This document shows, piece after piece, positions 1,123 through 63,000 of a stretch of DNA of 64,000 nt. Both the position numbers and the translations under genes were made by a program. Numbering within the stretch: position 1 is the stretch's first letter; each line of letters starts with the position of its first letter. The notes under the pieces were generated by a model. It saw only the letters and a list, made by a program, of their open reading frames with translations, searched no databases and was not told the origin of the DNA. Source of the DNA: Cordylochernes scorpioides (lineage: Eukaryota > Arthropoda > Arachnida > Pseudoscorpiones > Chernetidae); the NCBI GenBank assembly GCA_030710605.1, contig CP092886.1, positions 47,159,794-47,223,793 on the forward strand, read 5' to 3'.

Positions 1123-1237
1123 GCAAGTAATAATTCTATATCCCAATATATGTTTTTTTTTTTATTATCTAATGAATTAAGTATGGATTGCTCTATTTTC
1201 AAAACAATATATATATAAAGATAGACTTTCTTAATAT

Positions 1238-1430
1238 TGATAAATCAAGAAATTGGGTTGGCCAAATATCACGGAGCAAGCTAAATAAACGTTTAGTTTA
1301 TTTTTGCTCCACTAGATGGCGCTCTGCCATCTAAAAAGCACATGTGCTCGTGGTCAGGAGATGCCTTTTTTATTTTTAATATCAACACCTGACCCACTTA
1401 TCTTTTTTTTTCTATTGTTTTTTCATATAT
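1238..1430 (+). repeat. Structured hairpin repeat, copy A
   Basis: First of at least ten loci of one family. It contains, in order, AAATAAAC-loop-GTTTATTT, AGATGGC-GCTCT-GCCATCT, the palindrome AGCACATGTGCT, and GGTCAGG...CCTGACC. The ribozyme part of the family (see 55648-55704) is missing here. The copy directly abuts the PLE palindrome that starts near 1440. Confidence 0.75.
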
Positions 1431-1846
1431 ATATATATATATAAATAAATATAAAGCATATATTGGATCTAAATTTATTAAACGGCCAATATTTCTAGGG
1501 GCAACACGCCTCTCTTTATCAAGGCTTTTGAATTTAAACTAAATCACGTGGGCATGTGATCCACTCATGCTATACAAGATCAAAGTAAGAGAAACTATTT
1601 GATGAAAATTTTCACTATATATAAAATATATGTACAATGGTTATATTTAATAATAATTAAAAGAGTATACAATTAAATAACCATTTGATTAAATAAATGA
1701 AAAGATTGATAAATATTAGAAAATAAAAATGAGTAGGGATTATGATTCAATATGTTGTGTTGATAAATATAAATAAAAATATATTACAAGTATAAATATA
1801 TGCAAAAATAAAAAAATAAATAAAATAAAAATAATAATTAAATAAT

Positions 1847-2818
1847 TTAGGAAGATATAAATTCTCTATAAATTTCTGGTAGGTCGATTTTTCTATTTAT
1901 GCTTTCTGTATCTTTTATAGAGGCCCAGCTTTCTAAAAATAACCTGCAATGTTTTTCTTTAATATTCTGGTATAAAATTGATGCTTTGTCAAAATCGGGT
2001 ATATGACTATTGTTTAGCGCATGGTCTACTAGAATAGATAATGGTTTATGGATACGTAGAGCTGCTTTGTGCTGGTTAATGCGTTCTTTCAATGCTTTGC
2101 TGGTTTCTCCAATGTAAGTGGCTGGACAGGTTTTGCATGGAATTTTGTAAATAATATTGCTTTTGTTTTCCTTTTTACTATTATTCTTGGTGTTTGAGTG
2201 GCGTAGAATTTGTTTCAAATTTGGTGCAGATTGATATGTGGTAATTATATTGTATTTCTTCAATACTCTGGCGATTCTTTCTGATCCGTAACTGTATGGG
2301 AGAGAGCAATATCTTTTATCGGATTGAACATTGCTATTGTTTGAAGATGGGATTCTGGGAGTGTAAAAATGCTTCTTGATGAATTTCTTCGGATAATTAT
2401 TGCCTATCAACTCTTTAAAAATTATATCATTCTCTTCTTTTCTTTCAATATTTCTATTTGAGCAATGTGTAGTTAATCTTTTGGAAAGTGTTTTTACAAC
2501 CGCGATTTTATTATGAATCGGACCAAAAGAGCTAAAATTTAAATAGTTTCCTGTGTGCGTAGGTTTTCTGTATATGGTGGTTTCTATATGAAGTTCTTTT
2601 CTTACTAGTTGAATGTCTAAAAATGCTAAAGAATTATTGATTTCTATTTCGTGTGTGAACTTTAAATAAGGTTTGAGATTATTCAGAAAATATAGGAAAG
2701 TTTCAATTTCTGTTTCAGTTATGCAAAATACATCGTCAATATATCTCATCCATAATAAGACTTTTAAATTATTTGTTTCAGCAATAATTTTGTCTATTTC
2801 ATTCATGAAAAAGTTCCA
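1847..2818 (-). CDS. Penelope-like reverse transcriptase/GIY-YIG endonuclease, 5'-truncated
   Basis: PLE proteins combine a telomerase-like reverse transcriptase with a C-terminal GIY-YIG endonuclease that nicks the target. The frame shows the RT catalytic box MRYIDDVFC, then SLAFLDIQL and YRKPTHTGNY, and after a linker the GIY-YIG start IIYKIPCKTCPATYIGET with the CxxC pair seen in Penelope-type nucleases. The N-terminal RT motifs are missing. The open frame continues upstream to 2872, but those first ~18 residues are antisense of the plus-strand arm and not real protein. Its C-terminal 80 residues are repeated by the plus-strand copy. Not expected to be functional because of the truncation. 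Confidence 0.85.
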   Translation of the reverse strand, partial: WNFFMNEIDKIIAETNNLKVLLWMRYIDDVFCITETEIETFLYFLNNLKPYLKFTHEIEINNSLAFLDIQLVRKELHIETTIYRKPTHTGNYLNFSSFGPIHNKIAVVKTLSKRLTTHCSNRNIERKEENDIIFKELIGNNYPKKFIKKHFYTPRIPSSNNSNVQSDKRYCSLPYSYGSERIARVLKKYNIITTYQSAPNLKQILRHSNTKNNSKKENKSNIIYKIPCKTCPATYIGETSKALKERINQHKAALRIHKPLSILVDHALNNSHIPDFDKASILYQNIKEKHCRLFLESWASIKDTESINRKIDLPEIYREFISS

Positions 2819-3094
2819 GCCACTTACATTGGAGAAACCAGCAAAGCATTGAAAGAACGCATTAACCAGCACAAAGCAGCTCTACGTATCCATAAACCAT
2901 TATCTATTCTAGTAGACCATGCGCTAAACAATAGTCATATACCCGATTTTGACAAAGCATCAATTTTATACCAGAATATTAAAGAAAAACATTGCAGGTT
3001 ATTTTTAGAAAGCTGGGCCTCTATAAAAGATACAGAAAGCATAAATAGAAAAATCGACCTACCAGAAATTTATAGAGAATTTATATCTTCCTAA
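2816..3094 (+). CDS. PLE GIY-YIG C-terminus, inverted second copy (fragment)
   Basis: Begins inside the GIY-YIG motif (PATYIGETSK) at the palindrome centre, with no start of its own, and runs to TAA at 3092-3094. It is identical in protein sequence to the C-terminus of the minus-strand copy. It carries only part of the nuclease domain and no RT. A near-perfect match between arms suggests a recent event or one that made both arms at once. Confidence 0.8.
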   Translation, partial: PATYIGETSKALKERINQHKAALRIHKPLSILVDHALNNSHIPDFDKASILYQNIKEKHCRLFLESWASIKDTESINRKIDLPEIYREFISS

Positions 3095-3532
3095 ATTATT
3101 TAATTATTATTTTTATTTTATTTATTTTTTATTTTTGCATATATTTATACTTGTAATATATTTTTATTTATATTTATCAACACAACATATTGAATCATAA
3201 TCCCTACTCATTTTTATTTTCTAATATTTATCAATCTTTTCATTTATTTAATCAAATGGTTATTTAATTGTATACTCTTTTAATTATTATTAAATATAAC
3301 CATTGTACATATATTTTATATATAGTGAAAATTTTCATCAAATAGTTTCTCTTACTTTGATCTTGTATAGCATGAGTGGATCACATGCCCACGTGATTTA
3401 GTTTAAATTCAAAAGCCTTGATAAAGAGAGGCGTGTTGCCCCTAGAAATATTGGCCGTTTAATAAATTTAGATCCAATATATGCTTTATATTTATTTATA
3501 GATATTAATATGGATTGCTCAATCTTTAAAAT

Positions 3533-3534
<2 letters not shown>

Positions 3535-3621
<87 letters not shown>
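3535..3621. repeat. (TA)n microsatellite
   Basis: About 43 TA units in a row, at the junction between the PLE flank and the fold-back element. Reading frames across it (poly Ile-Tyr) are artefacts. Confidence 0.98.
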
Positions 3622-26462: not shown

Positions 26463-26650
26463 CCATATTTACAAAAGGTTTTATGCCGGCCAAAAGAAAA
26501 CAACAACAATGAATTTATATAGTGTAAAGCCGCGATATCCAGCGGTCGACTTTCACTGAGAGAATTTGTTCTAGAAAAATATATATAATTAGAAATACAA
26601 AAAACTTAAAAAACTTGTATATATAATATAAAATACTTTGTTTTTGATAT

Positions 26651-26800
26651 ATCAACACCTGACCTTTTTATTTTTTATTATTTTCTATTATTTTTTCACA
26701 TGTTAAGCGTATTTACGCAAGTTTGTGGCCTTAAATCCCCATTTCTTGATTTCTCAAGAAGCATCTGGGACAAAATATATTTTTTTTTAGCGACTCCTCA
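26651..26800 (+). repeat. Structured hairpin repeat, copy B (second half only)
   Basis: Begins at CAACACCTGACC and continues through GCGTATTTACGC, TTCTTGATTTCTCAAGAA and GGGACAAAATAT. It shows the part of the unit that joins the GGTCAGG/CCTGACC hairpin to the region upstream of the ribozyme. Confidence 0.65.
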
Positions 26801-39511: not shown

Positions 39512-39849
39512 TCATAATCGAAAATCAGCTATGTTTAAGTGGGTCTCGTTTTTAGATAAATAATCTGTTGAGATTTCACACAAAAAAAAAATAACACCTC
39601 TCATGTGTTATTTAATTAGATGCCAGTGTAGAAAAATGCAATGAATCTGTGGAAATATCCAAATATTTGTTTGAGAATGATTCCGAGATAATCGTGAATT
39701 AATCTGTAGACAATTGTTACACGGCACATTGAAGAGGATGCTATTGAACAAAATAATTTTCTTGAATAGGTATTTACTTTGGTGGAAATTTTTTATATAC
39801 CACGAGGAAATCATTCATATATATTTTTAAAAACTCCTCTACGGTGAAA

Positions 39850-40200
39850 AAGGCGGTAACGCGTTCGTGGTTGAATTTTCTTGATTTATCAAGAAATCGG
39901 GGCCGGCCCAATATCACGGAGCAAGTTAAATAAACGTTTAGTTCATTTTTGCTCCACCAGATGGCGCTCTGCCATCTAGAAAAGCTCATGTGAGCCTGGT
40001 CAGGATATGCCTCTTTTATATTTAATATACTCTTTTTTTTCATATATATATATAAATATAAATGAAAAAATAATTTTAAAAAATTAAAAAGGTCAGGTGT
40101 TGGTATTAAAATCAAAGGCATATCATGACCACGAGAACATTAACTTTTAGATGGTAGAGCGCCATCTAGTGGAACAAAAATCAACTAAACCAACTTCCAA
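39850..40200. repeat. Structured hairpin repeat, copy C (two inverted units)
   Basis: Plus unit 39865-40025: includes ACGCGTTCGTGGTTG (3' side of the ribozyme), TTCTTGATTTATCAAGAA, AAATAAACGTTTAGTT and GATGGCGCTCTGCCATC. Minus unit 40077-40190 repeats GGTCAGG and the GATGGTAGAGCGCCATC hairpin in the other orientation. The ribozyme 5' core (CTGANGA) is not present. Confidence 0.75.
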
Positions 40201-41417: not shown

Positions 41418-41565
41418 TAAGATATCACGGGGCAAGTTAAATAAACGTTAGTTTATTTTTGCTCCACTAGATGGCGCTATATATATATATATATAATAGC
41501 ATTTCCTGACCGCTCACATGAGCATTTTAGATGGCAGAGCGCCATCTAGTGGAACAATATATAAA
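41418..41565. repeat. Structured hairpin repeat, copy D (two inverted partial units)
   Basis: Plus part GATATCACGG...CACTAGATGGCGC, a (TA)n bridge, then the minus part CCTGACCGCTCACATGAGC to AGAGCGCCATCTAGTGGAAC. Confidence 0.75.
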
Positions 41566-43127: not shown

Positions 43128-43315
43128 AGATTTGGGTTGGCCAAATATATCAGGGAACGGGCTAAATCAATGTTTAGTTAATTTATGTTCCGCTAGATGG
43201 CGCTCTCCGTCTAAAAAGCTCATGTGCTCGTGGTCAGGATATATTTTATTTTAATACTAACAACTGACCTTTATTATTATTATTTTTTTTAATTTATTTT
43301 TTCATATGTAGGTAT
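43128..43315 (+). repeat. Structured hairpin repeat, copy E
   Basis: TTGGGTTGGCCAAATAT... GTTCCGCTAGATGGCGCTCT... CATGTGCTCGTGGTCAGG ... CTGACC ... TTTTTTCATATG. The right arm of the GATGGC hairpin has lost two bases (CCGTC for GCCATC). Confidence 0.75.
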
Positions 43316-44352: not shown

Positions 44353-44540
44353 ATTGTTATTTTTTTTAAAAAGGATATAGAAAATTTTATATATTTATAT
44401 TATATTTCAGCTAAATATTTAATTTTTAATTTATTATTATTTATATTTCATGTGTGTTTTTATATACTGTATTTAAGTATTATTTCATGAATATAAATTT
44501 TCGATAAAAGTTAACATATCAAATAAATATCTCGATTTAG

Positions 44541-46615: not shown

Positions 46616-46619
46616 CGCA

Positions 46620-47185
46620 AAATATAAAACAATAATAATAGTAAGGCGGCCATTTGCTTCTGTAAAACAATAGATACAAAAGCTCTTGCTATAAGCAATG
46701 CTAAAATAACAAAACGATTTTATAAATTTTGAAATTACACCATACTATAAATTTTAAAAATAATAATAAATTGTTTTGTTGTTTGGGTGTTTTTTTAATT
46801 TTGAGTATTTCCGTGGAACTATTGCTCACATAATATGGCCTTTAATATATAGTTCTTTATTTATTGAAATCTTATGATATATATATCTACTAGTACTAAT
46901 ATGGGGTTGAATCCATTTGATAATTTCTTTATTTCCAAGAACTGTTCGGGATTTTTGAAAATATTTAATCAACTCTAGTTTGCTGCATTCTCTGCCACAT
47001 ATATATGGATTTCTTAATGATTGGTTAGTTTAAGAGTTTTTTTTTTTAGGGAAAACATTTTAAACAAATGACTCCTCTTTTATAAATAAATATTCAAATT
47101 AGTTTAATGCAATACATATTTAAAATGCAAAATCATATCACAATTGAAAATATTCATATATTTTCATTATTCTAAGATGAGATAG
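46620..47185. other. No feature recognised
   Basis: AT-rich. Confidence 0.5.
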
Positions 47186-50551: not shown

Positions 50552-51781
50552 TTTTGGTGGAGATGCTGGGTAAGTTAGGGAAGACCGCCGAGAAGACCTT
50601 GAAGCCATGGGTGCTGTGATCTACATTTGCGAAGACTGACTCCAGGATTCCACCGCCGTGCTAAAGCCAAGACTTCCCTCGAAAATGACGATGTCCCTCT
50701 AGAAGATATGACGACAAAGCCGCTCTTCACGCCGCAAAAAAAAAAAAGGACGCAAAAGTACTAGGGACAAAGTTCCAAGACTTCGATGGAATCCTTGGCA
50801 AAAGTACGTCAGATCCATGTCAGTATCTACAAGGTGTGTCCAATAAATAATGAGACCGGTCAAAAACAAAGAAAAAAAAATGAAATGATATTTTTTTTAA
50901 AAGAGTCTATTAAAAAAATAGAAAGCTTCAGCTACACTGCGGTATATCACATCACGTTATTGCGCGTGCAGTCGATAAATTGTAAGCTTGTAAAAAGAAC
51001 GCCTTGCATAACAACTTCTAATTTGTAATGGATAGAAAATTCGAACAACGAATTTGTATTAAAAATTGCTAAAAAAATGGGAAATCGGCTTCAAAAACTT
51101 TAGATTTGTTGAAATTGGCATTTGGAAATGAAAATGTAAATAAGCCCACCACATATAGATGGTTTTCATGATTTAAAAATGGAATGGAATCGGTGAAAGA
51201 TGAGAAGCGTGTTGGACGTCCAATTCTACACAGGAACCCTGAAAAGATGAGCCAAATTTCAAATTTGATAAAATAAAATCCACGAATAGGGTTACGGGAC
51301 ATTGAGGAAGAAACAGGGATATCAAAATCATTAGTTGGATCGATAATTAAAGAAGACTTGCAGTTAAAGAAGACACCTTCAAAATTTGTCCCTAAAATGC
51401 TCACAATCCAACAAAAGGAGAATCGCGTTGAAGTTGCCAAAAAATGCTTGAAATGGTGGAAGAAACCCCTAATTGGAAGGAAAAAGTAATATCTGGAGAC
51501 GAGACATGGGTTTACGGGTATGACCCGGAAACAAAACGCCAATCCATGGAGTGGAAAGGAAAAGATTAACCAAGAACGAAGAAACCCAAGTCATTTGCAA
51601 GTCAAAAAACAAAGTCTTATTGGTCACGTTCTTTGACATAAAGGGAATTCTGCATTATGAATATCTAAAGGAAGGTCAAACAATCAATAAGGAGTCTTAT
51701 TTAAACATTATGAGACGTCGATAGAAAAACCCCGTACAATTTATAAATGAATAAAATAAAGCATCAAGGGCTGCGTATCTT

Positions 51782-51845
51782 TATTAGAACGACTATATTA
51801 TGAGCTTTCGGGCACATACGCCCTTCTACAGGAATTAATAAACTA
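51782..51845 (-). ncRNA. Hammerhead-like motif near the PLE end (degenerate)
   Basis: On the minus strand: CCTGTAGAAGGGC, a hairpin GGGC-GTATGT-GCCC, then GAAA and GTC. Flanks TTTATTA and TAATAAA can close stem I. The core reads CTGTAGA where a hammerhead needs CTGANGA, so catalysis is doubtful. The same motif is at 53255-53319 on the plus strand. Confidence 0.45.
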
Positions 51846-52110
51846 ATAATCCAACTAGTTTGAAAATAGAATTTATATACACGTAGCTATTGTTTTGCAT
51901 ATCTGCTTAATTAGATAAATATTAAAATGTTTAAATTTACATGCAGGTGTAATGATTTGGAAAAACTAATTCTAATTTATATGAGGTAATATGATACATT
52001 TTGATTAAAGCAAACTTATTTTGTATTTTATATACAAATTTTTTCAAATTTTACAACTTGCAAGGAATCCCATTAGACATGTGATATCTTATACAATGAA
52101 TGAATTTGTT

Positions 52111-52374
52111 TTATCTTATTTTATTTAAGTCTATTGAATTATATGCTTCTGGTAAATCAATTCTGCGATTTATACTGTTGTATTGTTTGGACACTATTGC
52201 TTCAATTATTAATCTTTGATATTTGTTACTGATATTGTTGTAATGTGCTTTAGGTTCATTTAAGTTGAATGTGTGTCCTGTTGAATTGGAGTGCTGTATT
52301 ATTAATGATAAAGGGTCATTTCTGTTTATGTTTCTTCTGTGTTCAATGATTCTATTATGTAATTTTCTTCCCGT
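52111..52374 (-). CDS. PLE GIY-YIG endonuclease C-terminus (short arm)
   Basis: Starts inside the domain (TGRKLHNRIIEHRRN) and ends with RRIDLPEAYNSIDLNKIR and a stop. Differs from the long arm by a few residues (IIEH for ITEH, IIQH for IVQH, KAHYNNIS for KVHYNNIN), so the arms have diverged slightly or came from different copies. No start codon of its own at the element level. Confidence 0.75.
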   Translation of the reverse strand, partial: TGRKLHNRIIEHRRNINRNDPLSLIIQHSNSTGHTFNLNEPKAHYNNISNKYQRLIIEAIVSKQYNSINRRIDLPEAYNSIDLNKIR

Positions 52375-52377
52375 CAA

Positions 52378-52987
52378 AACTCATGAAACACAAACAGTTA
52401 TCCAAAATTTAACATCAGCTGGTTACCCCAAAACATTTATTTTAAAACATTTCTATCAGGCACAGGTCACATCTAACATGTTAGCACAAAAAACTAAAAT
52501 ATACAGGCAAAATTGTTACATTCCATATTCCCCGAAATCCATCCACATTTCCAGAACATTAGATAAATATGGAATAAAAACCTTTTATAGTAACTCTCCC
52601 AGCTTATCAGATATCTTAAGAAACCCGATAACAAAAAACAGGCAAACCAAATACATATCATGTAGAAAAGAGGTAATTTATTCTATAGAATGCAATAACT
52701 GTAATGCCAGATATGTGGGGGAGACGGGAAGAAAATTACATAATAGAATCACTGAACATAGAAGAAACATAAATAGAAATGACCCTTTATCATTAATAGT
52801 ACAGCACTCCAATTCAACAGGACACACATTTAACTTAAATGAACCTAAAGTACATTACAACAATATCAATAACAAATATCAAAGATTAATAATTGAAGCA
52901 ATAGTGTCCAAACAATACAACAGTATAAATCGCAGAATTGATTTACCAGAAGCATATAATTCAATAGACTTAAATAAAATAAGATAA
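52378..52987 (+). CDS. PLE linker and GIY-YIG endonuclease (long arm)
   Basis: Real homology starts near ETQTVIQNLTSAGYPKTFIL; the open frame extends upstream to 52265 but that part is antisense of the other arm. Blocks: SPSLSDILRNPITKNR, then VIYSIECNNCNARYVGETGR (GIY-YIG start with CxxC) and EHRRNINRN. The RT domain is absent. The same protein family as 1847-2818 but from a different subfamily (limited identity). Inactive for retrotransposition as it stands. Confidence 0.8.
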
Positions 52988-53254
52988 AACAAATTCATTC
53001 ATAGTATAAGATATCACATGTCTAATGGGATTCCTTGCAAGTTGTAAAATTTGAAAAAAATTGTATATAAAATACAAAATAAGTTTGCTTTAATCAAAAT
53101 GTATCATATTACCTCATATAAATAAGAATTAGTTTTTCCAAATCATTACACCTGCATGTAAATTTAAACATTTTAATATTTTTCTAATTAAGCAGATATG
53201 CAAAACAATAGCTACGTGTATATAAATTCTATTTTCAAACTAGTTGGATTATTA

Positions 53255-53319
53255 GTTTATTAATTCCTGTAGAAGGGCGTATGTGCCTGAAAGCTTGTAA
53301 TATAGTCGTTCTAATAAAG
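53255..53319 (+). ncRNA. Hammerhead-like motif near the PLE end (degenerate)
   Basis: Mirror copy of 51782-51845, with GCCTGAAA in place of GCCCGAAA (one stem II pair weakened). PLEs in many animals are known to carry hammerhead ribozymes near their ends. Confidence 0.45.
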
Positions 53320-53844
53320 ATACGCAGCCCTTGATGCTTTATTTTATTCATTATGAGACGTGTACGTGAATCAATTCGTCTGAAAAGAAGTGAAATGTGG
53401 AGTTCCAAAAATTGGATTATCCATCATGATAATGCACCACCACACACCGCTACATCTGTACTGACTTATTTGGCTAAACACGGCATCCAAATACTTCAAC
53501 AACCTACCTATTCCCCAGACCTAGCTCCAAATTATTTTTTTTCTCTTTCCAAAACTCAAAATGGCTCTAAAAGGAAGGAGATTTGACACTAGATAGTCGA
53601 TCATAGCGGATTCGAAAAAGGTCTTGAAGGAAATCCCGAAAGATGCCTTTTCTAAATGTTTTAAATCATGGGAGAAGAGATGGAAATTATGTATAGCTGC
53701 GGGAGGGGACTATTTTGAAAAATACTAATATTTTTTTTTATCATTCAATTTTTTCTTTATTTTTGACCAGTCTAATTATTTATTGGACACACCTTGTACA
53801 ATAATTGCTAGCTGTGGGTCACAGCTCCCATAGGGAAAAAGCTA

Positions 53845-55632: not shown

Positions 55633-55830
55633 GATAAATCAAGAAAAGCCAACCACGAACGCGTTTCGGGCTTTTGTACCTCGTCAGCGTGGTACAGGCT
55701 GTACCTCTACGACCAAAAATTTGGTCTCAAGGCTTTCTGAGAAATTAAGAAATGGGAAGTTAAAACCAAATTTGCGTAAATACGCTAAAATGTGAGAAAG
55801 GTAAAAAAAAAATAATAAAATGGTTAGTTA
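55633..55830 (-). repeat. Structured hairpin repeat, copy J, with ribozyme
   Basis: Read on the minus strand: GCGTATTTACGC hairpin, CCATTTCTTAATTTCTCAGAA, ACCAAATTTTTGGT hairpin, GTACAGCCTGTAC hairpin, the hammerhead (55648-55704), then TTCTTGATTTATC where the copy ends. It gives the link between the parts seen in copies B and C. Confidence 0.8.
55648..55704 (-). ncRNA. Type I hammerhead ribozyme, best copy
   Basis: Minus strand. Core CTGACGA (C3 to A9, N7 = C) and GAAA are complete. Stem I: ACCACG before the core pairs with CGTGGT after the cleavage site, and GCC/GGC extends it past an internal loop. Stem III is minimal: ACGCGT folds on itself, leaving T as the H17 cleavage base before CGTGG. 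Stem II has two clear G-C pairs (GG..CC). Very short stem III is the known form in animal retrozymes and PLEs, thought to work as a dimer. Confidence 0.75.
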
Positions 55831-56029
55831 TTACAATGTTGTCCCAAAGGTTCGTAAACACTTGCAAAAATTGAAATACCAATATTATTCGTTATATTAT
55901 TCGCCGTTATGTATAATGTCTTTGTATTATGTATAAAGTAATTGTATTATGTATTCGCCGTAATAATATTATTCGCCAAGTAATAAGAAAAACACGAACT
56001 TTTGGGACAACCTTATAATATTAAAAAAA

Positions 56030-56420
56030 TAGAAAGGGCGTTTCCTGACCGCTCACACGGGCATTTTAGATGGCGGAGCACCATCTAGTGGAACAAATAC
56101 CATCTAAACGTTTTTCTTTATAATGATGGTTGGCTTTTCTTGATTTATATTTTAAAAAATGGATTGGTCAAATATTATGGAACAATCAAAATCAGTGCTT
56201 AGTTGATTTTTGTTCCACTAGATGGCGCTCTGCCTTCTAAAAGTGCGGTAAAGGAAATGCCCTTTTTACTTTTAATATCAAAACCTGACCTTTTTCTTTT
56301 TTATATTACTTTTTTCATGTTTATCGCATTCACGAAAATTTGACTACAATTTTCCATTTCTTGATTTCTCAAGAAACCTCTAGGACCAAATATTTTGGTT
56401 TTCGAGGTATAGGCTAGCAT
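56030..56420. repeat. Structured hairpin repeat, copy F (inverted half plus a whole unit)
   Basis: 56030-56115 is a minus half (CCTGACCGCTCACACGGGC...CACCATCTAGTGG). 56125-56420 is a plus unit that starts at GGTTGGCTTTTCTTG (just after the ribozyme cleavage side) and ends at GACCAAATATTTTGGTTTTCG-AGGTATAGGC, just where the ribozyme would begin. So its borders lie at the ribozyme. Confidence 0.8.
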
Positions 56421-56526
56421 AAAGCAAATGGTGAACACGGGAGAAATTTGGGTTGTAGAAGTATAGACCCATTAACGGGTTTGGTTAGAGCGTCTTGCTG
56501 GTCTCGCTTCCAAGAAGCAAAAATAT

Positions 56527-56690
56527 TGTAACAAAGTATTTATTAATTTTATTTTTTTTATCAACAGAGTTGTCATATTATGTTTATATTTTGCTATTCT
56601 GTAAATTTCCCTCATTGCTTATCTTTTGTTTACCATTCTTAGTTTTCTGTGTCAGCCCGAAGTTTGTCTTCCCTAAGTTTCCATGTGGCA
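56527..56690 (+). mobile_element. Solo LTR of the TRIM family
   Basis: TGTAACAAAGTATTTATTAA ... CATGTGGCA matches the TRIM LTRs (50366, 53845). Flanked by ATAT at 56523-56526 and 56691-56694. 164 bp, so slightly shortened. Confidence 0.85.
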
Positions 56691-56703
56691 ATATTGAGTC
56701 GAT

Positions 56704-56877
56704 AAAATAAGGTTCATCAATGACAGCATCAGGAAGGACAGTGTTCGATATCTAGGAGTAATCCTTGATCATCATCGGTACTTAACAAACACATTGAAAA
56801 CTGGGTGAACCTCACAAATACAGCAAACAAAGACTAACCCTCTTGTTAAGCAATAAAAGTAAACTCACACTATATAC
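56704..56877 (+). pseudogene. Non-LTR retrotransposon RT fragment
   Basis: The plus strand reads IRFINDSIRKDSVRYLGVIL D, then after a frameshift NKHIENWVNLTNTANKD, then a stop and LLSNKSKLTLYT. The V.YLGV.LD...W..HI block followed by L..KSKL....L is the thumb-side part of Jockey/CR1-like RT. The fragment is cut at 56877 by the Tigger-like element. Confidence 0.65.
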
Positions 56878-58020
56878 AGTCAAACCTCTTTAATTCAACA
56901 CCCCAAGGGATCAGAGCTTTCGGTTGAATTAAAGGAAGTGTTGAATTAAGGTGAGATGATTAGGTAATCATCTAACTCGCTAAAATAATATTTTTTTAAA
57001 AATAGCCTTGTAATATAAATTAATGATATTAATTGAAACCATTGTGTGTTTTTATTTTATTTTCATGATTAACTTTTAGTATCAGGGACAAAATGGCATT
57101 AATACATATTTTAGAAACAAAAATAATTGTAACAAATAAATTTACTGGCAATGTGTTTCTTTTCAGTAATATAATCAAATATTAACTCTACAGACATTAA
57201 AATATTAAATATAATATATTAAATAATATTTTATTCTAATTGAAAAATATAGCAGTTGAAAGGAAATAAATATGGTAAATAAAAATAAAATTTTAAAATA
57301 TTATTTAAAAATTATCATGAAGATCTTTTAAAAAATTCCTTTATAGATGTCTGTTTTTGCACTGAAATCCTATTCAGGATGTATTCCAGACGGTCATTTT
57401 GAAAAAACATGCATGTCTTTCTTCTTCTAAAATGTTTTTTTAATAAATAAATTTTAATGTATTAAAGTCATCCACTGCTGCTGCAGGTATTATTGATTTT
57501 GTGTTTAAATCTTTTATAATAACACAGAAATGGAATATTGAAATAAAATGTTATCATAATCATTGTGGCTACATTTTATAAAGATTTATTTATTTAAAAA
57601 GAAATTATTTATAAATTTAAAAATAGCTAAAATATTTCAATGTTAAAAATAAAAAAATAAAAATTATTATTAGTTAGCGCATGATGCCGAAATTCCCGCG
57701 TAAAAAAACAACAATAACATCCGCGAAATTGCGCAACGGCACTGCAAAGTGAAACTTAAACTAACCAGAAACCAAAAGTGCGCAGGCGCGATCCGATCGG
57801 CGCCCGCCGTAATACCGTTTAGCGGTAAAGTTGCATGTAAAATAACATTCAACTGTCGAAATTCGAATTTTAAAATGGTCGAACTATCGGAACTGTCGTA
57901 TTATCGATACTGTCGAATTACGGTTTGTTATTTGATAGGCCGGAGGTCGGGACATCGGAACATGGTCGAATTATCGCCGAGTGTCGAATTGGGGTGTGTC
58001 GAATTAACGAGGTTATATTA
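56878..58020. mobile_element. Tigger/pogo-like non-autonomous element
   Basis: Left end CAGTCAAACCTCTTTAATTC with TA before it; right end CGAATTAACGAGGTTATATT is a degenerate complement. The near-end parts keep runs of TCGAATTA / TTGAATTAA, which suggest sub-terminal repeats. About 1.14 kb and no transposase. Right border is uncertain by tens of bases. Confidence 0.5.
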
Positions 58021-58089
58021 CCTTATTATATTCATCATCCACTTTCCCTTTAACTTTCTTTTTTTATTCTTGATCTATTTTAATCAATT

Positions 58090-58254
58090 GAAGCATAGGG
58101 CGCCTCTCCCGTCAAAATATACGTCAAAAATTGACGTCATCTATTAACCGTCGCCGCAACTAGCGGCTTCGGGTCGGTAGTTGCGGCGACGGTCAATAGA
58201 TGGCGTCAGTTTTTGACGTATATATATAGAAGCATAGGGCGCCTCTCCCGTCAA
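58090..58254. repeat. 46-bp-arm palindrome flanked by 26-bp direct repeats
   Basis: Arms 58117-58162 and 58178-58223 are reverse complements with about 3 mismatches (ATATACGTCAAAAATTGACG against its complement) around a 15-nt GC-rich loop. The direct repeat GAAGCATAGGGCGCCTCTCC (26 bp in full) lies on both sides, 58090-58115 and 58229-58254. Confidence 0.85.
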
Positions 58255-58269
58255 TAGATCTTCCATCTA

Positions 58270-58540
58270 TATACATATATTAAAAATAAAAAAGGCATAT
58301 CCTGACCAGGAGCCCATGCGCTTTTCAGATGGCAGAGCGCCATCTAGTGGAACAGAAATCAATTAAACATTAATTTAACCTGTTCCCTAATATTTGACCA
58401 ACTCAATTTCTTGATTTATCAGGGAACAGGCTTAATCAATGTTTAGTTGATTTCTGCTCCACTAGATGGCGCTCTGCCATCTGAAACGCGCATGTATTCC
58501 TGGTAAGGATATGGCTTTTTTATTTTTAATTATATATGTA
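58270..58540. repeat. Structured hairpin repeat, copy G (two inverted units)
   Basis: Minus part 58284-58422 (CATATCCTGACC ... GCAGAGCGCCATCTAGTGG) and plus part 58425-58540 (TCAGGGAACAGGC ... GATGGCGCTCTGCCATCTG) meet tail to tail. The joint arrangement forms a long imperfect hairpin. Confidence 0.75.
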
Positions 58541-59002
58541 AAATAATAGATATAATATTACTGTTAATTTCTAATCGGCAATATCTTGCTATACTGACAA
58601 CATATTATCAATTTAAGCCTGTGACTATAATGAAAAACAACAACAAAAGAACCACAGACCAGACAAGTTCTATATGAATTCAAGCAAAATAATGAAAAAT
58701 GAAAAAAAAAATGATGTCGAAACATTAATCTTACCAAGTAATCCCCTAACACTACTTATAGAAACATGCAGCAGATGGTACAGAGCGTATTTACAAGATA
58801 CAGATCATAAATATTAGTTAATATACAAGTATAATTACACTAATTAAATTTATACTGATATATAATATACTTGTGTATCGTTTTGAATTATTATATATTT
58901 TTAAATGTACTTGTACTTGTATATATATTACTTAAACAGCATATTTTGGATCAAAAATAAGACATTTTATTGGTTGCAAAAATTCAATATTACATATATA
59001 CA

Positions 59003-59043
59003 TATAGATGGCGCTCTGCCATCTAAAAAGCACATGTGCTCGT
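59003..59043 (+). repeat. Structured hairpin repeat, copy H, left part
   Basis: ATAGATGGCGCTCTGCCATC ... CATGTGCTCGT. The unit is cut here by the Ty3/gypsy element and resumes at 62676 (CTCGTGGTCAGGATATGCC). Confidence 0.85.
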
Positions 59044-59299
59044 TGTCGTATATTTATATTTTAATTATATAATTTAATATTGTATATAATATATTAATAT
59101 AATAATATTATTAAATCCACAGATTATTATTCTGCGAAATATTGTATATATCATAACATATAATTTATCATCATTTAATTCGATTGTTAACTTGTAATTC
59201 TTAAGCTTGCATCTAATACGGTGTAATATAATAAATGCCATTTAAATAAATAAAGCCTAAAATATATTTCTACTTTTAAATCAACCTAAATACACCACA
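59044..59299 (+). repeat. Ty3/gypsy 5' LTR
   Basis: 256 bp, TG...CA borders, with AATAAA near 59250. Confidence 0.92.
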
Positions 59300-59375
59300 G
59301 ATGGCGACGAGGATATAAAAAAACTTTAAATTAAGTTTAACTAACTTTTAAAAAGGCTATATAATTTTATTCAAA

Positions 59376-60050
59376 ATGGCGAACGCAAATTTAGTTCCAT
59401 TTCCAAAATTTTCCGAATTTAGTTTCGATATTTTCATAAAATGTCTTAAATCTGCATTTATAGTGAATGAAACGCTTGAAAATAAATACGTCCCAATACT
59501 TCTTTCGTTATTAGATACAAAAATGTATAAATTAACTGAAGATTTATTTGCGCCAGAAGATCTATCTTCGAAATGTTTTGATGAAATTATCGCTAAATTG
59601 CAGCAATATCTTGCACCTACACCAAAAATAATTTCTGCTAGATTTAAATTTTTTAAGAGAATGCAAGAAAATGAATCTATTGCCGAATATATGGCAGAAT
59701 TGAGAAATTTAGCAGATGCATGTAAATTTGGAAATACACTAAACGAAATGCCTAGAGATAAAATTGTAATTGGCGTTAAATCTGATAAATTACAACAAAG
59801 ATTATTGCAGGAAGGAGATGATGCAAGCCTAAATAGATTATATGAAATAGCTCTATCTTATGAAGCCGTAAAGAATGATTTAAAGATGAAATGGCAAAAT
59901 GAAAACGGAATTGTTGATGAAATTCAACATGAGTATAAATTCAAAATAAAATGTTCTCATTGTAGCAAAGATAATCATTCGTCAGATAAGTGTTATTTAA
60001 AAAAATCTAAATGTCATAATTGCGGCAAAATTGGGCACATTAAACCCATA
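59376..60050 (+). CDS. Ty3/gypsy Gag, cut in its second zinc knuckle
   Basis: Starts at ATG 76 bp after the LTR (MANANLVPFPKFSEFSFD). The capsid-like part includes FKRMQENESIAEYMAELRNL ADAC, the major block of this Gag class. At the C-terminus, CSHCSKDNHSSDKC is a full CCHC knuckle and CHNCGKIGHIKP begins a second, whose last Cys falls just after the mariner insertion at 60051. Past that point the open frame runs into mariner sequence and is not Gag. The insertion splits Gag from protease. Confidence 0.88.
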
Positions 60051-61371
60051 CGAGGTGTGTTCAAAAAGTATCGCGACTTTTGTGTTTTTTCAAAAATTAT
60101 TTATTTTTCATGAATACCTATTTTGTCCCCTTCAAAGTAATCCCCATGAGATATTATACAGTTGTGCCAACGGTTTTTCCAATCTTCGAAGCACTTCAAA
60201 AAATCATTTTTTAAAATCTTTTTCAGCTCCTCCTTCGATGCCGTCTTTATCTCGTCAAGCGTAGCGTAACGTCGTCCTTTCATGGGCCTCTTCAGTTTAG
60301 GGAACAAGAAAAAGTCACAGGGGGCCAGTTCTGGGGAATACGGTGGCTGCGGCATCATTAGTGTGTTGTTTTTGGCCAAAAAGTCGCGCACAAGCAACGA
60401 TGTGTGAGCAGGGGCGTTATCGTGGTGCAAAAGCCTATTTTTGTTCTTCCACAAATCCGGGCGTTTCTGGCGGATTGCTTCGCGCAAATTGCGCATAACT
60501 TGCAGGTAATATTCCTTATTGACTGTTCTACCCTGTGGCAAGAACTCATGATGCACCACGCCCCTGCAATCGAAGAAAACTGTCAGCAAAAGTTTCACAT
60601 TCGACCGAACTTGGCGCGCTTTTTTCGGTCTTGGTTCGTGCGGCAGTTTCCATTGAGATGATTGAGCTTTGGTTTTCACGTCATAACCATAAACCCACGC
60701 TTCGTCACTAGTTATGACCCTCTGGAGCAAATTTGGGTCGTCGCGGACAGAGTCCAACATCTCATTAGCAATGTTCATGCGATGCTGTTTTTGGTCGCAA
60801 TTGAGCAATTTTGGTACGAATTTCGCGGCGACCCGTCTCAAGCCCAAATCATTGATAAAATTCGAATGGCACGAGCCAATCGATATGTTTAGGTCCTCAG
60901 CAACTTCTCTAACGGTGATTCGACGATTGGCCAATATTATTTTTTCCACTTCATTAATTTTTTCGACTGTTGTTGAAGTGCTCGGGCGTCCGGCACGCTC
61001 TTCGTCGTTCACATCTTCTCGGCCTTCTGAGAACATTTTGTACCACCGATAAATGTTGCTTCGGTCCAAGGTAGCTTCTCCGTATGCCACAGTCAACATT
61101 CGGAATGCATCCGCGCACTTAATTTCGTTTTTCACAAAAAATTTGATACAGGTTCTTTGATCCATCTTTTTTAATAGGTAAAAATCGAAGACGATCCAAA
61201 ACACCTGCAAGCAAAGCAGCTGTCAACAATTAAGTGAACATTCAAAATGGCCGAGCTTGTCGGCATAAGTGAGAGACATGAGTACCAACATAAAGCCACA
61301 AAAAGATCGAAATTCGAATATACCTAACCCACGAAAATTCAAAAGTCGCGATTCTTTTTTAACACACCTCG
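60051..61371 (-). mobile_element. mariner transposon, apparently complete
   Basis: 1321 bp. Ends CGAGGTGTGTTCAAAAAGTA and its complement (right end: CAAAAGTCGCGATTC..., CACACCTCG) are inverted repeats over about 31 bp with two mismatches. TA on both sides (60049-60050, 61372-61373) is the target duplication. It disrupts the Gag zinc knuckle. Confidence 0.93.
60101..61165 (-). CDS. mariner transposase (intact, DD34D)
   Basis: 354 codons from MDQRTCIKFFVKNEIKC to GIHEK, the usual mariner length; an upstream in-frame Met at 61210 would add 15 unlikely residues. N-terminal helix-turn-helix blocks, then WYKMFSEGREDVNDEERAGR PS. Catalytic blocks VITSDEAWVYGYD, LLHHDNAPAHTS and YSPELAPCDFFLFPKLK give the three Asp, with 34 residues between the second and third. 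No stops or frameshifts. Closest in style to the mellifera-type mariners of arthropods. It could be active, and it is the only intact transposase gene here. Confidence 0.93.
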   Translation of the reverse strand: MDQRTCIKFFVKNEIKCADAFRMLTVAYGEATLDRSNIYRWYKMFSEGREDVNDEERAGRPSTSTTVEKINEVEKIILANRRITVREVAEDLNISIGSCHSNFINDLGLRRVAAKFVPKLLNCDQKQHRMNIANEMLDSVRDDPNLLQRVITSDEAWVYGYDVKTKAQSSQWKLPHEPRPKKARQVRSNVKLLLTVFFDCRGVVHHEFLPQGRTVNKEYYLQVMRNLREAIRQKRPDLWKNKNRLLHHDNAPAHTSLLVRDFLAKNNTLMMPQPPYSPELAPCDFFLFPKLKRPMKGRRYATLDEIKTASKEELKKILKNDFLKCFEDWKNRWHNCIISHGDYFEGDKIGIHEK

Positions 61372-61398
61372 TATGTAGGAAGGAAAAGAATTTCAAAA

Positions 61399-61912
61399 AT
61401 TTGAAAATTCTCGTAAATAAAATAAATCTAATAATATTAACATAATTCAAAATTCCAGCGAGGAAGATAATACAAATATAATACAGTCAAATGATAATGG
61501 GAAATATCGTATTGAATTAAATGTAGATAACAAGTATATAATGTTCGAGTTCGATACAGGGAGTTATTATACTCTAATGCCAATAAATATTCACAAGAAG
61601 TTTTGGAAAAGAAAATTGACTCCTGTTAGTTTGAATCTCCGATCATTCTCGAATACAAAAATAAATGTGATAGGCAAAATAGAAGTATTTGTTGAGGAGG
61701 CAAATATGGAACTTCCCCTTATAATAACCGAAGCCAACAGACCATTGTTACTGGGCACTAGTTGGATCAAAAATCTACCCGCACAACTGCTGAAATTTTC
61801 TGATGTGAATTCGGTTCAAGAAATTACCTGCGTATCACTTCTGAATAAATTCTCGAATGTTTTTGATACTTCAAATATTGGAGTTGTAAAAAGCCACCCC
61901 AGGCCCATTTGA
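61399..61912 (+). CDS. Ty3/gypsy protease and start of RT (truncated)
   Basis: From SSEEDNTN the frame reads to FEFDTGSYYTLMP (catalytic DTG of the aspartic protease), LPLIITEANRPLLLGTSWI (flap and the LLG strand), then the RT approach KFSNVFDTSNIGVVKSHPRP. The frame hits a stop at 61910-61912 and homology continues one frame over at 61913. The catalytic RT motifs never appear. Confidence 0.82.
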
Positions 61913-62406
61913 TTCTTGAGAAGGAGGCTCATCCGAAATTCTTTAAATCAAGAAACGTTCCATTCGTTATGAGACCAAATTTTGAAAGCAAAGCCAAATT
62001 AGGAAAAAAAACATTTCCGGAATTCAAGGTAAATGTTGTTTTAGTTAGAGATCATTTTGGTCCAAATAGATGGATCGAGGGAGAAATCACGGAAAAGCTG
62101 AGAAAATGCTTTTACAGGATTCTGCTAAGGGAAAAGAGAGTATGGAGACGACATGCTGGGCAAATAAGAAAAAACTGGACATTGCCTTGTCCTGATCCAG
62201 AGGTGTTCCTCCCGACGCCCCAAAATGTCCAAAGAAATCATGAAGACATTCCCTTAGACAAGACTGCTACATCCTCCAGTAGAGAAGACGCCCCACTGTT
62301 CCAGCCCACTCCGGGGACCTCAGCAGCAGCAGAACAGGGGACTCTGAGACCGAGTCGGCGATATCCTCTAAGGGAGAGGAGGCCGCCTGACAGATTCCAT
62401 TTCTAA
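61913..62406 (+). CDS. Ty3/gypsy RT stub joined to integrase C-terminus
   Basis: HLILEKEAHPKFFKSRNVPF and MRP look like the first RT block. It then jumps to VNVVLVRDHFGPNRWIEGEI, FYRILLREKRVWRRHAGQIR and the RRYPLRERRPPDRF tail, which are the integrase C-terminal chromodomain-like region and terminal tail. RT, RNase H and the integrase core are deleted at the joint (near residue 25 of this frame). The tail matches the protein at 88-138 in another gypsy copy. Confidence 0.8.
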
Positions 62407-62419
62407 GGAGGGAAGGAAC

Positions 62420-62675
62420 TGTCGTATATTTATATTTTAATTATATAATTTAATATTGTATATAATATATTAATATAATAATATTATCAAATCCACAGAT
62501 TATTATTCTGCGAAATATTCTATATATCATAACATATAATTTATCATCATATAATTCTATTGTTAACTTGTAATTCTTAAGCTTGCATCTAATACGGTGA
62601 AATATAATAAAAGCCATTTAAATAAATAAAACCTAAAATATATTTCTACTTTTAAATCAACCTAAATACACCACA
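62420..62675 (+). repeat. Ty3/gypsy 3' LTR
   Basis: 256 bp; about eight substitutions or small indels against the 5' LTR. Confidence 0.92.
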
Positions 62676-62715
62676 CTCGTGGTCAGGATATGCCTTCTTT
62701 ATTTTTAATATATAT
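62676..62715 (+). repeat. Structured hairpin repeat, copy H, right part
   Basis: CTCGTGGTCAGGATATGCCT resumes the unit interrupted at 59043; the CTCGT is the gypsy target duplication. Confidence 0.85.
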
Positions 62716-62830
62716 GTTTGTGTGTAATGAACACCTATACATAACTATTGGTTTTATATTTATAAACTAAGTTGCTCTTTATGATCAGCGTACCTGATAA
62801 TGTTATTTTGAAATGGAACTGGGCATAGCG

Positions 62831-62886
62831 GTACAGCCTGCACCACGCTGACAAGGGTCAGCTGCCCGAAACGCATATGTAGTTGG
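62831..62886 (+). ncRNA. Type I hammerhead ribozyme, second copy (core changed)
   Basis: GCCTGCACCACG, then CTGACAA (G8 changed to A), stem II GGG-TCAGCTG-CCC with three G-C pairs, GAAA, then ACGCAT and TGTAG-TTGGC. Stem I is weakened by C-to-T and G-to-A changes of the kind produced at CpG sites. Stem II is better here than in the 55648 copy; the loss of G8 should inactivate it. Confidence 0.65.
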
Positions 62887-63000
62887 CTTTTCTTGATTTA
62901 TCAAGAAAATGCGTTGGCAAAATATTATGGAACAACCAATTAGTTTATTTTTGTTTCACTAGATGGCGCTCTGCCATCTAAAAATGCTCATGCGGTATTA
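62831..63000 (+). repeat. Structured hairpin repeat, copy I, with ribozyme
   Basis: Follows copy H by about 115 bp in the same orientation. Contains the ribozyme (62831-62886), TTCTTGATTTATCAAGAA, TAGTTTATTTTTG and GATGGCGCTCTGCCATC. Together H and I look like two tandem units with the junction at the ribozyme. Confidence 0.8.

What the first reader, a model, noticed from the sequence alone, without database searches (positions are those of the whole stretch)
55633..63000. A family of ribozyme-bearing repeats built almost entirely of hairpins: candidate retrozyme
Seen directly: ten or more loci share a unit (1238, 26651, 39850, 41418, 43128, 55633, 56030, 58270, 59003/62676, 62831). Reading the copies together gives, in order, GCGTATTTACGC, TTCTTGATTTCTCAAGAA, ACCAAATATTTTGGT, GTACAGCCTGTAC, a hammerhead core, TTCTTGATTTATCAAGAA, AAATAAAC-GTTTA-GTTTATTT, AGATGGC-GCTCT-GCCATCT, AGCACATGTGCT and GGTCAGG...CCTGACC. 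Each is a perfect or near-perfect hairpin. There is no reading frame. Known: retrozymes are non-coding retroelements cut and circularised through hammerheads; type I hammerheads with tiny stem III are the animal form. Inference: this is an animal retrozyme-like element, or the terminal repeat of a PLE, about 330-400 bp per monomer.
Basis: partly seen in the sequence, partly recalled or inferred. Interest (0 to 1): 0.92.

Follow-up and report, generated by a model that had tools for sequence, protein, structure and literature searches.

The report
Ribozyme repeat that integrates Penelope-style
A short non-coding repeat that carries a self-cutting RNA (a hammerhead ribozyme) is scattered through what appears to be a pseudoscorpion genome, and its copies bear the same insertion marks as a Penelope retrotransposon in that genome, which hints at the machinery that moves such ribozyme repeats in animals.

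Summary
The repeat is real. The window holds 8 loci (not 10+) of one unit of about 318-328 nt without a long reading frame; two retain a hammerhead core region, one of them intact. A whole-genome search scored 40 hits out of 2247 candidates. Of the 30 fetched, 27 keep CTGANGA...GAAA, and stems I and II covary. A downstream hairpin covaries too; the AGATGGC hairpin hardly does (left arm conserved, right arm decaying). So "built almost entirely of hairpins" is only half right.

The main finding is how copies end. In 27 loci (55 copies) 5' ends scatter, while 38 of the 3' ends fall in two narrow zones. In a second tally (TA)4+ tracts follow 24 of 38 tails. Neighbouring copies are mostly head-to-head, read through the hammerhead, and can exceed one monomer. 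An autonomous Penelope family of the same genome (PLE1) shows the same signature. Penelope-like coding sequence lies near only 1 of 30 unit loci.

Best reading: a non-autonomous, retrozyme-like element integrated by Penelope-type machinery. This supports a published proposal with new genomic anatomy. Transcription, cleavage and circles are untested. The kind is known in animals; the Penelope signature on a hammerhead repeat is the new part.

The parts
1237..1430 (+). Copy A: 5'-truncated, long 3' end (...CACCTGACC...TTTTTTCATATATA), joined tail-to-tail through TA repeats to the Penelope element PLE1
26637..26787 (+). Copy B: tail-to-5' half of the unit (GCGTATTTACGC, TTCTTGATTTCTCAAGAA)
39848..40190 (.). 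Copy C: two partial units tail-to-tail; the forward one begins in a decayed hammerhead 3' part
41419..41565 (.). Copy D: two short partial units tail-to-tail across TA repeats
43132..43310 (+). Copy E: 5'-truncated, long 3' end; possible 8-bp target duplication ATATGTAG (43122 / 43304)
55633..56113 (-). Copy F plus G-inverted: one near-complete minus-strand unit, split by a MITE-like insert (55829-56020)
55640..55709 (-). Hammerhead ribozyme, intact core CTGACGA (55687-55681) ... GAAA; predicted cut GTT|CGTGG
56127..56405 (+). Copy G forward: begins just 3' of the hammerhead cut and runs through the tail into the next monomer up to ACCAAATATTTTGGT; head-to-head with the F copy
58272..58540 (.). 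Copy H: head-to-head palindrome, both arms with the short 3' end facing outward
59003..59043 (+). Copy I: first monomer (partial) of a direct tandem, interrupted by an LTR retrotransposon (59044-62675, TSD CTCGT)
62676..63000 (+). Rest of copy I plus copy J: second monomer of the tandem (period 318)
62848..62871 (+). Hammerhead remnant, core broken (CTGACAA)
1429..3560 (.). PLE1: two 5'-truncated Penelope copies head-to-head (junction about 2814/2815), GIY-YIG ORF 1847-2872 (-), ends at TA repeats; the candidate helper family

Best explanation
The unit is a non-autonomous, non-coding retroelement of about 318-328 nt per monomer with a type I hammerhead ribozyme: a retrozyme-like element. INFERRED: it is transcribed as a multimer or circle, and the hammerhead, whose stem III is too short to form alone but whose ACGCGU is self-complementary, cuts as a dimer. 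SHOWN for the loci examined: copies have two preferred 3' end zones, scattered 5' ends, TA-rich sites beyond the 3' ends, frequent head-to-head pairing, and run uncut through the hammerhead for up to about 1.6 monomers. INFERRED: a Penelope-type reverse transcriptase/GIY-YIG endonuclease nicks TA tracts and starts copying at one of the two sites in uncut multimeric or circular RNA; priming from both sides of the break gives head-to-head pairs. PLE1, a recent Penelope family in the same genome, is the best candidate helper because its copies bear the same signature.
For: Hammerhead: 27 of the 30 main matches keep the core and 25 keep ACGCGT; with the broken window copy and 7 further sites, themselves picked by a core pattern, it is 34 and 28 of 38. 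Stems on those 38 rows: 92.5% paired against 25-47% when slid; 16 cells changed on both sides against 5.8 shuffled (0 of 500 reach it); 4 pairs changed on both sides against 1.7 (16 of 500); pair 24-75 is CG 14 / UA 10 / UG 5. 3' part, 32 rows: 28 two-sided cells (26 in the GGAACAA hairpin) against 12.1, 0 of 500. Ends: of 55 copies in 27 loci, 26 3' ends lie at unit positions 140-160 and 12 at 180-200; 5' ends scatter; neighbours are 12 head-to-head, 3 tail-to-tail, 1 direct. Second tally, 41 tails with GGTCAGG (8 more lacked it): 28 without the long tail, 10 long, 3 read-through; (TA)4+ follows 17 of 28 and 7 of 10, against 195 of 4992 random 55-nt stretches of the window (55 nt looked at after short ends, 75 after long ones). 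Over one monomer: L013, 532 nt. PLE1: two 3' ends, (TA)4+ after 28 of 33 ends in 30 loci, 3 further reading into a next ORF; neighbours within 5 kb 19 head-to-head, 5 direct, 0 tail-to-tail among 119 listed matches. PLE1-like and unit tails abut across TA repeats at window A, L013, L031, L057. Non-autonomy: PLE-like protein similarity in 1 of 30 unit loci (L012, 3 kb each), by 64 homologues plus two window ORFs; five other loci match only the unit-derived or transposase part of the chimeric protein P0006.
Against: No RNA data. Thermodynamics do not favour the hammerhead fold in the window's own copy: monomer MFE -18.9 is another fold, and the forced double hammerhead is -31.5 against a dimer MFE of -49.5. 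Stem II of that copy is weak, and the second window copy is broken. Rfam does not recognise it. Not all covariation measures stand out: on the 3' part the number of pairs with two-sided change (6 against 4.7, 120 of 500) and of pair types (257 of 500) do not, nor did the window copies alone convince (9 cells against 5.3, but pairs 4 against 3.9); shuffles ignore relatedness. RNAalifold keeps only 4 pairs on the 3' part. 5' ends within 20 nt of the cut are 6 of 55 where about 3.3 are expected (two of them one duplicated event), so no clear trace of cleavage. The loci were picked by similarity to the hammerhead segment and are the best hits, not a random sample. 'Short end' is partly a default class. 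Shared target and pairing do not prove a shared enzyme. No strict hammerhead was found in the two PLE1 stretches read.
Confidence: 0.72

Rival explanations
1. The unit is the pseudo-LTR (pLTR) of an autonomous Penelope family not seen here, surviving mostly as solo pLTRs.
For: pLTRs of Penelope elements carry minimal hammerheads (PMC7761336, PMC11167929, passages) and occur inverted, head-to-head and solo with an optional 3' tail (PMC3846280, passages). The unit has just these habits.
Against: PLE-like coding similarity in only 1 of 30 unit loci and none in three extended flanks. The unit continues straight into the next unit without a frame: 318-bp tandem in the window, 532-nt copy in L013, 3 read-through tails. 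PLE1's own pLTR is a different sequence.
Confidence: 0.17
2. The unit is a foldback or MITE-like DNA transposon whose palindromes are its terminal inverted repeats; the hammerhead is incidental.
For: Copies C, D, F/G and H are inverted repeats; H folds extremely well (z -23.5).
Against: Palindromes are of two kinds with different junctions; 5' ends are scattered and 3' ends fixed, as in target-primed reverse transcription; hammerhead core and stems are conserved with covariation.
Confidence: 0.05
3. The copies are old debris of a canonical retrozyme or satellite, integrated by some other non-LTR machinery; the likeness to PLE1 is convergence on AT-rich target sites.
For: AT-rich targets suit many endonucleases (recalled); several window copies are decayed (z-scores; broken hammerhead at 62848).
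Against: Two alternative 3' ends plus head-to-head pairs plus AT-rich sites are together a Penelope habit (PMC3846280, PMC11167929, passages) and are matched in PLE1 of the same genome.
Confidence: 0.12

Closest known systems
Animal non-LTR retrozymes with type I hammerheads (Cervera & de la Pena 2020, PMC7229834; seen: parts 1-3 of 6 and passages)
   Same: Non-coding, low GC (0.27-0.46 in the window copies), monomer within about 170-400 nt, direct tandem arrangement in one window locus, type I hammerhead, genome also holds PLEs.
   Different: Published invertebrate ones mostly have a stable stem III and occur as direct tandem repeats, up to dozens of copies; here stem III is almost absent and head-to-head pairs of truncated copies dominate. 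A two-ended 3' terminus was not mentioned in what I read, and the word 'inverted' does not occur in the main text.
Minimal hammerheads in pLTRs of Penelope-like elements (described in PMC7761336, PMC6155905, PMC11167929, passages; the original reports of 2014 and 2017 were not held)
   Same: Type I hammerhead nearly without stem III, thought to self-cleave as dimers; the host elements have head-to-head copies, an optional 3' tail, AT-rich targets.
   Different: No reading frame attached; stem I has an outer part beyond an internal loop and stem II is a 4-bp GGGC/GCCC stem, both covarying.
Amphibian (newt, axolotl) retrozymes, 330-350 bp (PMC7229834, part 3)
   Same: Size, weak stem III with self-complementary sequence, dimeric cleavage expected.
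   Different: Different animals and sequence; there in tandem satellite-like repeats.
Penelope/Poseidon insertion products (PMC3846280; PMC11167929, passages)
   Same: 3' 'tail' signature, head-to-head junctions, AT-rich sites, partial tandems.
   Different: Those elements encode their own enzyme.

Membership tests
Animal non-LTR retrozyme | Type I hammerhead with conserved core | tested here: met
   27 of 30 main matches; covarying stems
Animal non-LTR retrozyme | Canonical helix III and loop I-loop II contacts | tested here: inconclusive
   Helix III is at most one pair with a 2-nt loop; ACGCGT self-complementary in 25 of 30 main matches. Tertiary contacts not testable; amphibian members also have a weak helix III (PMC7229834)
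Animal non-LTR retrozyme | Non-coding monomer of about 170-400 nt, low GC, in direct tandem | tested here: met
   318 / 328 nt, GC 0.27-0.46, one tandem dimer in the window and copies over one monomer elsewhere; long arrays not seen
Animal non-LTR retrozyme | Linear and circular RNA in tissues, self-cleavage | not testable with these tools
   no RNA data
Penelope-like element (autonomous) | RT and GIY-YIG frame between pLTRs | tested here: not met
   PLE-like similarity in 1 of 30 unit loci, none in L039-L041 beyond short P0006 hits
Penelope-like element (integration mode) | Two fixed 3' ends with scattered 5' truncation | tested here: met
   26 and 12 of 55 3' ends in two 20-nt bins; tails printed
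Penelope-like element (integration mode) | Head-to-head inverted pairs | tested here: met
   12 of 16 adjacent pairs; PLE1 19 of 24
Penelope-like element (integration mode) | AT-rich target | tested here: met
   (TA)4+ after 24 of 38 ends against 195 of 4992 random stretches
MITE / foldback DNA transposon | Constant terminal inverted repeats at both ends | tested here: not met
   5' ends scatter

The most novel reading that the evidence does not exclude
Animal hammerhead repeats of this kind are parasites of Penelope elements: a Penelope enzyme reverse-transcribes uncut multimeric or circular ribozyme RNA from two alternative internal start sites, as on its own RNA, at TA tracts and from both sides of the break. 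The hammerhead serves to make the RNA form, not the ends of the inserted DNA. In addition, the element keeps a protein-binding DNA motif (CTAGATGGCGCTCT, like CTCF or YY1 sites as I recall them) that it scatters through the genome.
Probability: 0.5. Interest if true: 0.72.

Novelty: new variant of a known kind. Interest (0 to 1): 0.56.

Why it matters
Which enzyme moves animal retrozymes is open; PLEs have been named as likely candidates because both occur in the same genomes (PMC7761336, its section 6). Here the inserted copies themselves carry the Penelope signature, and a recent Penelope family with the same signature sits in the same genome, so the question becomes directly testable with one protein and one RNA. 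It also suggests that hammerhead cleavage shapes the RNA rather than the DNA ends, in line with the report that PLE insertion in vitro does not need the hammerhead (PMC11167929, passages).

Tried and rejected
Rejected or weakened: (1) "Ten or more loci": 8 after removing splits by a MITE-like insert and an LTR element. (2) AGATGGC hairpin as a selected RNA structure: left arm 8 of 224 mismatches, right arm 27 of 223; 18 rows against 2 favour the left (sign test p 0.0004). (3) Fold energy as proof: control stretches reach z <= -2 in 8 of 40 and <= -3 in 3 of 40. (4) Copies ending at the ribozyme cut: no cluster of 3' ends there; 5' ends inconclusive. (5) Two hammerheads 642 nt apart in L032 looked like two monomers, but the stretch between is not all unit. 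(7) Exact-pattern scans of genome contigs and viral contigs for a 23-nt piece around AGATGGC: 0 hits, as expected for an animal repeat. (8) Covariation on window copies alone was weak, hence the genome loci. (9) A generic hammerhead pattern gave 53 matches in the genome against 31 for the backward control; of its 8 loci only L002 held a weak piece of the unit, away from the pattern. Rows dropped: L014, L026, L037 as duplicates; L009, L014, L037. L010 is a segmental duplicate of the window F/G locus and stayed in the counts. No genome-wide count of intact hammerheads was obtained.


Full report
WHAT IS THERE. The window (GC 0.34) is animal DNA crowded with transposons. Its PLE frame at 1847-2872 has eight Cordylochernes scorpioides proteins as best relatives at 60-71% identity. 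Contig C24 of the window's assembly is 180,100,396 bases, exactly the contig length listed for the C. scorpioides protein P0006, so I infer that the window lies on the chromosome called X in that pseudoscorpion assembly. Self-BLAST gives one family of copies, which reduces to 8 loci: A, B and E single; C and D tail-to-tail; F/G and H head-to-head; I-J direct tandem. F and G-inverted are one copy opened by a MITE-like insert; I-J is opened by an LTR retrotransposon with TSD CTCGT, and without it the period is 318. G plus F gives a monomer of 328. Every junction of the unit, including tail to 5' half (B, F, G), is seen in some copy, so the master was tandem or circular. No ORF of 150 aa or more lies in a unit.

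THE RIBOZYME. A strict descriptor (stem I at least 5 bp, CTGANGA, stem II at least 2 bp, GAAA, UH) finds one site, 55687 (-); 200 shuffles average 0.015. The homologous site at 62848 (+) has CTGACAA. A search of the whole genome with 88 nt around the first site gave 2247 first-look candidates, of which 40 were scored, at 92-100% identity over nearly the full query; 30 loci were fetched. Of these 30 main matches (one is the window copy itself; 28 distinct sequences) 27 keep the core and 25 keep the self-complementary ACGCGT where stem III should be. The alignment used for covariation adds the broken window copy and 7 further sites that were noticed by a core pattern: 38 rows, 36 distinct, 34 with the core, 28 with ACGCGT. 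The stem model (outer stem I AGYC/GRCT, internal loop, inner stem I ACCACG/CGTGGT, stem II GGGC/GCCC) is paired in 92.5% of cells; 16 cells changed on both sides against 5.8 in shuffles, none of 500 reaching it; 4 pairs against 1.7 (16 of 500) and 11 further pair types against 8.8 (25 of 500). Such shuffles ignore relatedness; the slid controls, which keep it, give 1-2 cells. Energy calculation does not favour this fold in the window copy; minimal hammerheads are short of pairs, so I give covariation more weight.

THE REST OF THE UNIT. On 32 copies of the 3' part the modelled structure has 28 two-sided cells against 12.1 (0 of 500; slid controls 3-8): 26 of them in the GGAACAA...TTGTTCC hairpin and 2 in the AGATGGC hairpin. 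The number of pairs with two-sided change (6 against 4.7) and of pair types (21 against 20.6) does not stand out, and RNAalifold on the same alignment keeps only 4 pairs. In the AGATGGC hairpin the left arm is far better kept than the right, which points to a constraint on the sequence ACTAGATGGCGCTCT rather than on a hairpin. A CTCF-like consensus that I recalled matches 8 times in the window, all inside units, and never in 100 shuffles; that the factor binds is conjecture, and YY1-type sites look similar.

HOW COPIES END. Mapping 55 copies in 27 loci to unit coordinates (three duplicate loci left out), 5' ends scatter over the monomer, 26 3' ends lie at 140-160 and 12 at 180-200 (the mapping is by BLAST ends, so good to about 10 nt). 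Read directly, the short end is ...TTTTTAATA and the long one adds TCAACACCTGACC...TTTTTTCACATA. By a second classification, of 49 tails 8 lack GGTCAGG; of the other 41, 28 lack the long tail (called short), 10 are long, 3 read on into the next monomer; (TA)4+ follows 17 of 28 and 7 of 10 ends against 195 of 4992 random stretches of the window. Adjacent copies are 12 head-to-head, 3 tail-to-tail and 1 direct. Copies run through the hammerhead, up to 532 nt (L013), so the template was not a cut monomer; multimer or circle both fit. 5' ends near the cut are not clearly in excess (6 of 55 within 20 nt, about 3.3 expected).

COMPARISON WITH A HELPER. PLE1 is a recent family: 119 matches listed (of 55137 first-look candidates, 118 scored), the best apart from the window's own at 94-98%, several with open frames of about 800 aa. 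Its copies end either at ...TTTATTTAT or about 35 nt later inside the first codons of the frame (...ATGGATTGCTCAATCTTTAAAAT); (TA)4+ follows 28 of 33 ends in 30 loci, 3 more read into a next frame. Neighbours within 5 kb: 19 head-to-head, 5 direct, 0 tail-to-tail. This is the structure described for Penelope in Adineta vaga (pLTR with an optional tail that adds codons, head-to-head most frequent; PMC3846280, passages) and fits the in vitro work on the Anolis element (internal start at two adjacent sites, AT-rich cuts on both strands, hammerhead not needed; PMC11167929, passages). Unit and PLE1-like tails abut across TA repeats at four loci (window A, L013, L031, L057); L057 shows a head-to-head pair of units set into the TA tract next to a PLE1 tail.

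NOT A PLE ITSELF. tblastn with 64 PLE homologues and two window ORFs finds PLE-like sequence in 1 of 30 unit loci (L012); five others match only the unit-derived or transposase parts of P0006, a predicted gene that fuses a transposase, an antisense piece of the unit and a PLE. Three extended flanks add none apart from such hits. No strict hammerhead was found in the two PLE1 stretches read.

JUDGEMENT. Shown, for the loci examined: a widespread, non-coding, hammerhead-bearing repeat with conserved, covarying ribozyme stems and Penelope-type insertion anatomy. Inferred: transcription, dimeric cleavage, circles, and PLE1 or a relative as helper. Literature: the papers listed (capped lists: 20 of 41, 10 of 10, 14 of 14, 12 of 4079, 15 of 507; titles and abstract starts) show none on such an element in a pseudoscorpion or other arachnid; the original PLE-hammerhead reports and the Terminon paper were not held. 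The kind is known, and PLEs had been proposed as mobilisers (PMC7761336, its section 6); the insertion signature on a hammerhead repeat is what I would report as new, within those searches.

Noticed in passing
window 58094-58223; L024:570, L030:2035, L054:641 (+), L061:3657 (-): A second hammerhead family (CTGACGAGGGCCATT..CCGAAAC, followed by CACGGTC, CTTGGTC, TATGGTC or CATGGTC) with the same stem I/II design. Sequence near three of the four matches a palindromic fragment in the window right beside copy H, which also contains ATAGATGGCG.
   Followed up: partly
L055:3543 (-), L070:3232 (-): Two motifs that look like the minimal Penelope-type hammerhead (CTGACGAG...GTCGAAACGTC) near PLE1 loci; not assigned to a PLE family.
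   Followed up: no
window 1309-1323, 39954-39968, 40158-40172, 41464-41478, 41538-41552, 56215-56229, 58336-58350, 58459-58473: Eight exact matches to a CTCF-like consensus (recalled), all inside units, 0 in shuffles; the conserved arm of an otherwise decaying hairpin.
   Followed up: partly
window 59044-62675: LTR retrotransposon (LTRs 97.3% alike, TSD CTCGT) with a mariner-type transposase ORF (60101-61210 -, Transposase_1) nested inside it.
   Followed up: partly
window 51746-53352: A second, different Penelope family (ORF 52265-52987; GIY-YIG match 20.1 bits, just under Pfam's cut-off of 22.6) also arranged head-to-head (arms 97.8% alike).
   Followed up: partly
G000:C2:163773408-163779920: Three PLE1 copies in direct tandem, 2772 bp apart; the frame read from the stretch between the first two is 803 codons stop to stop.
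   Followed up: no
P0006 residues 339-360 (LAZ67_X003755): A database protein is a gene-model chimera: transposase, antisense unit, Penelope RT/EN.
   Followed up: yes
window 44523-46627: Tandem repeat array with spacings near 53 bp in the self-BLAST.
   Followed up: no
window 22578-22528 (-): U6-like fragment, 34.3 bits, below the Rfam gathering score of 44.
   Followed up: no
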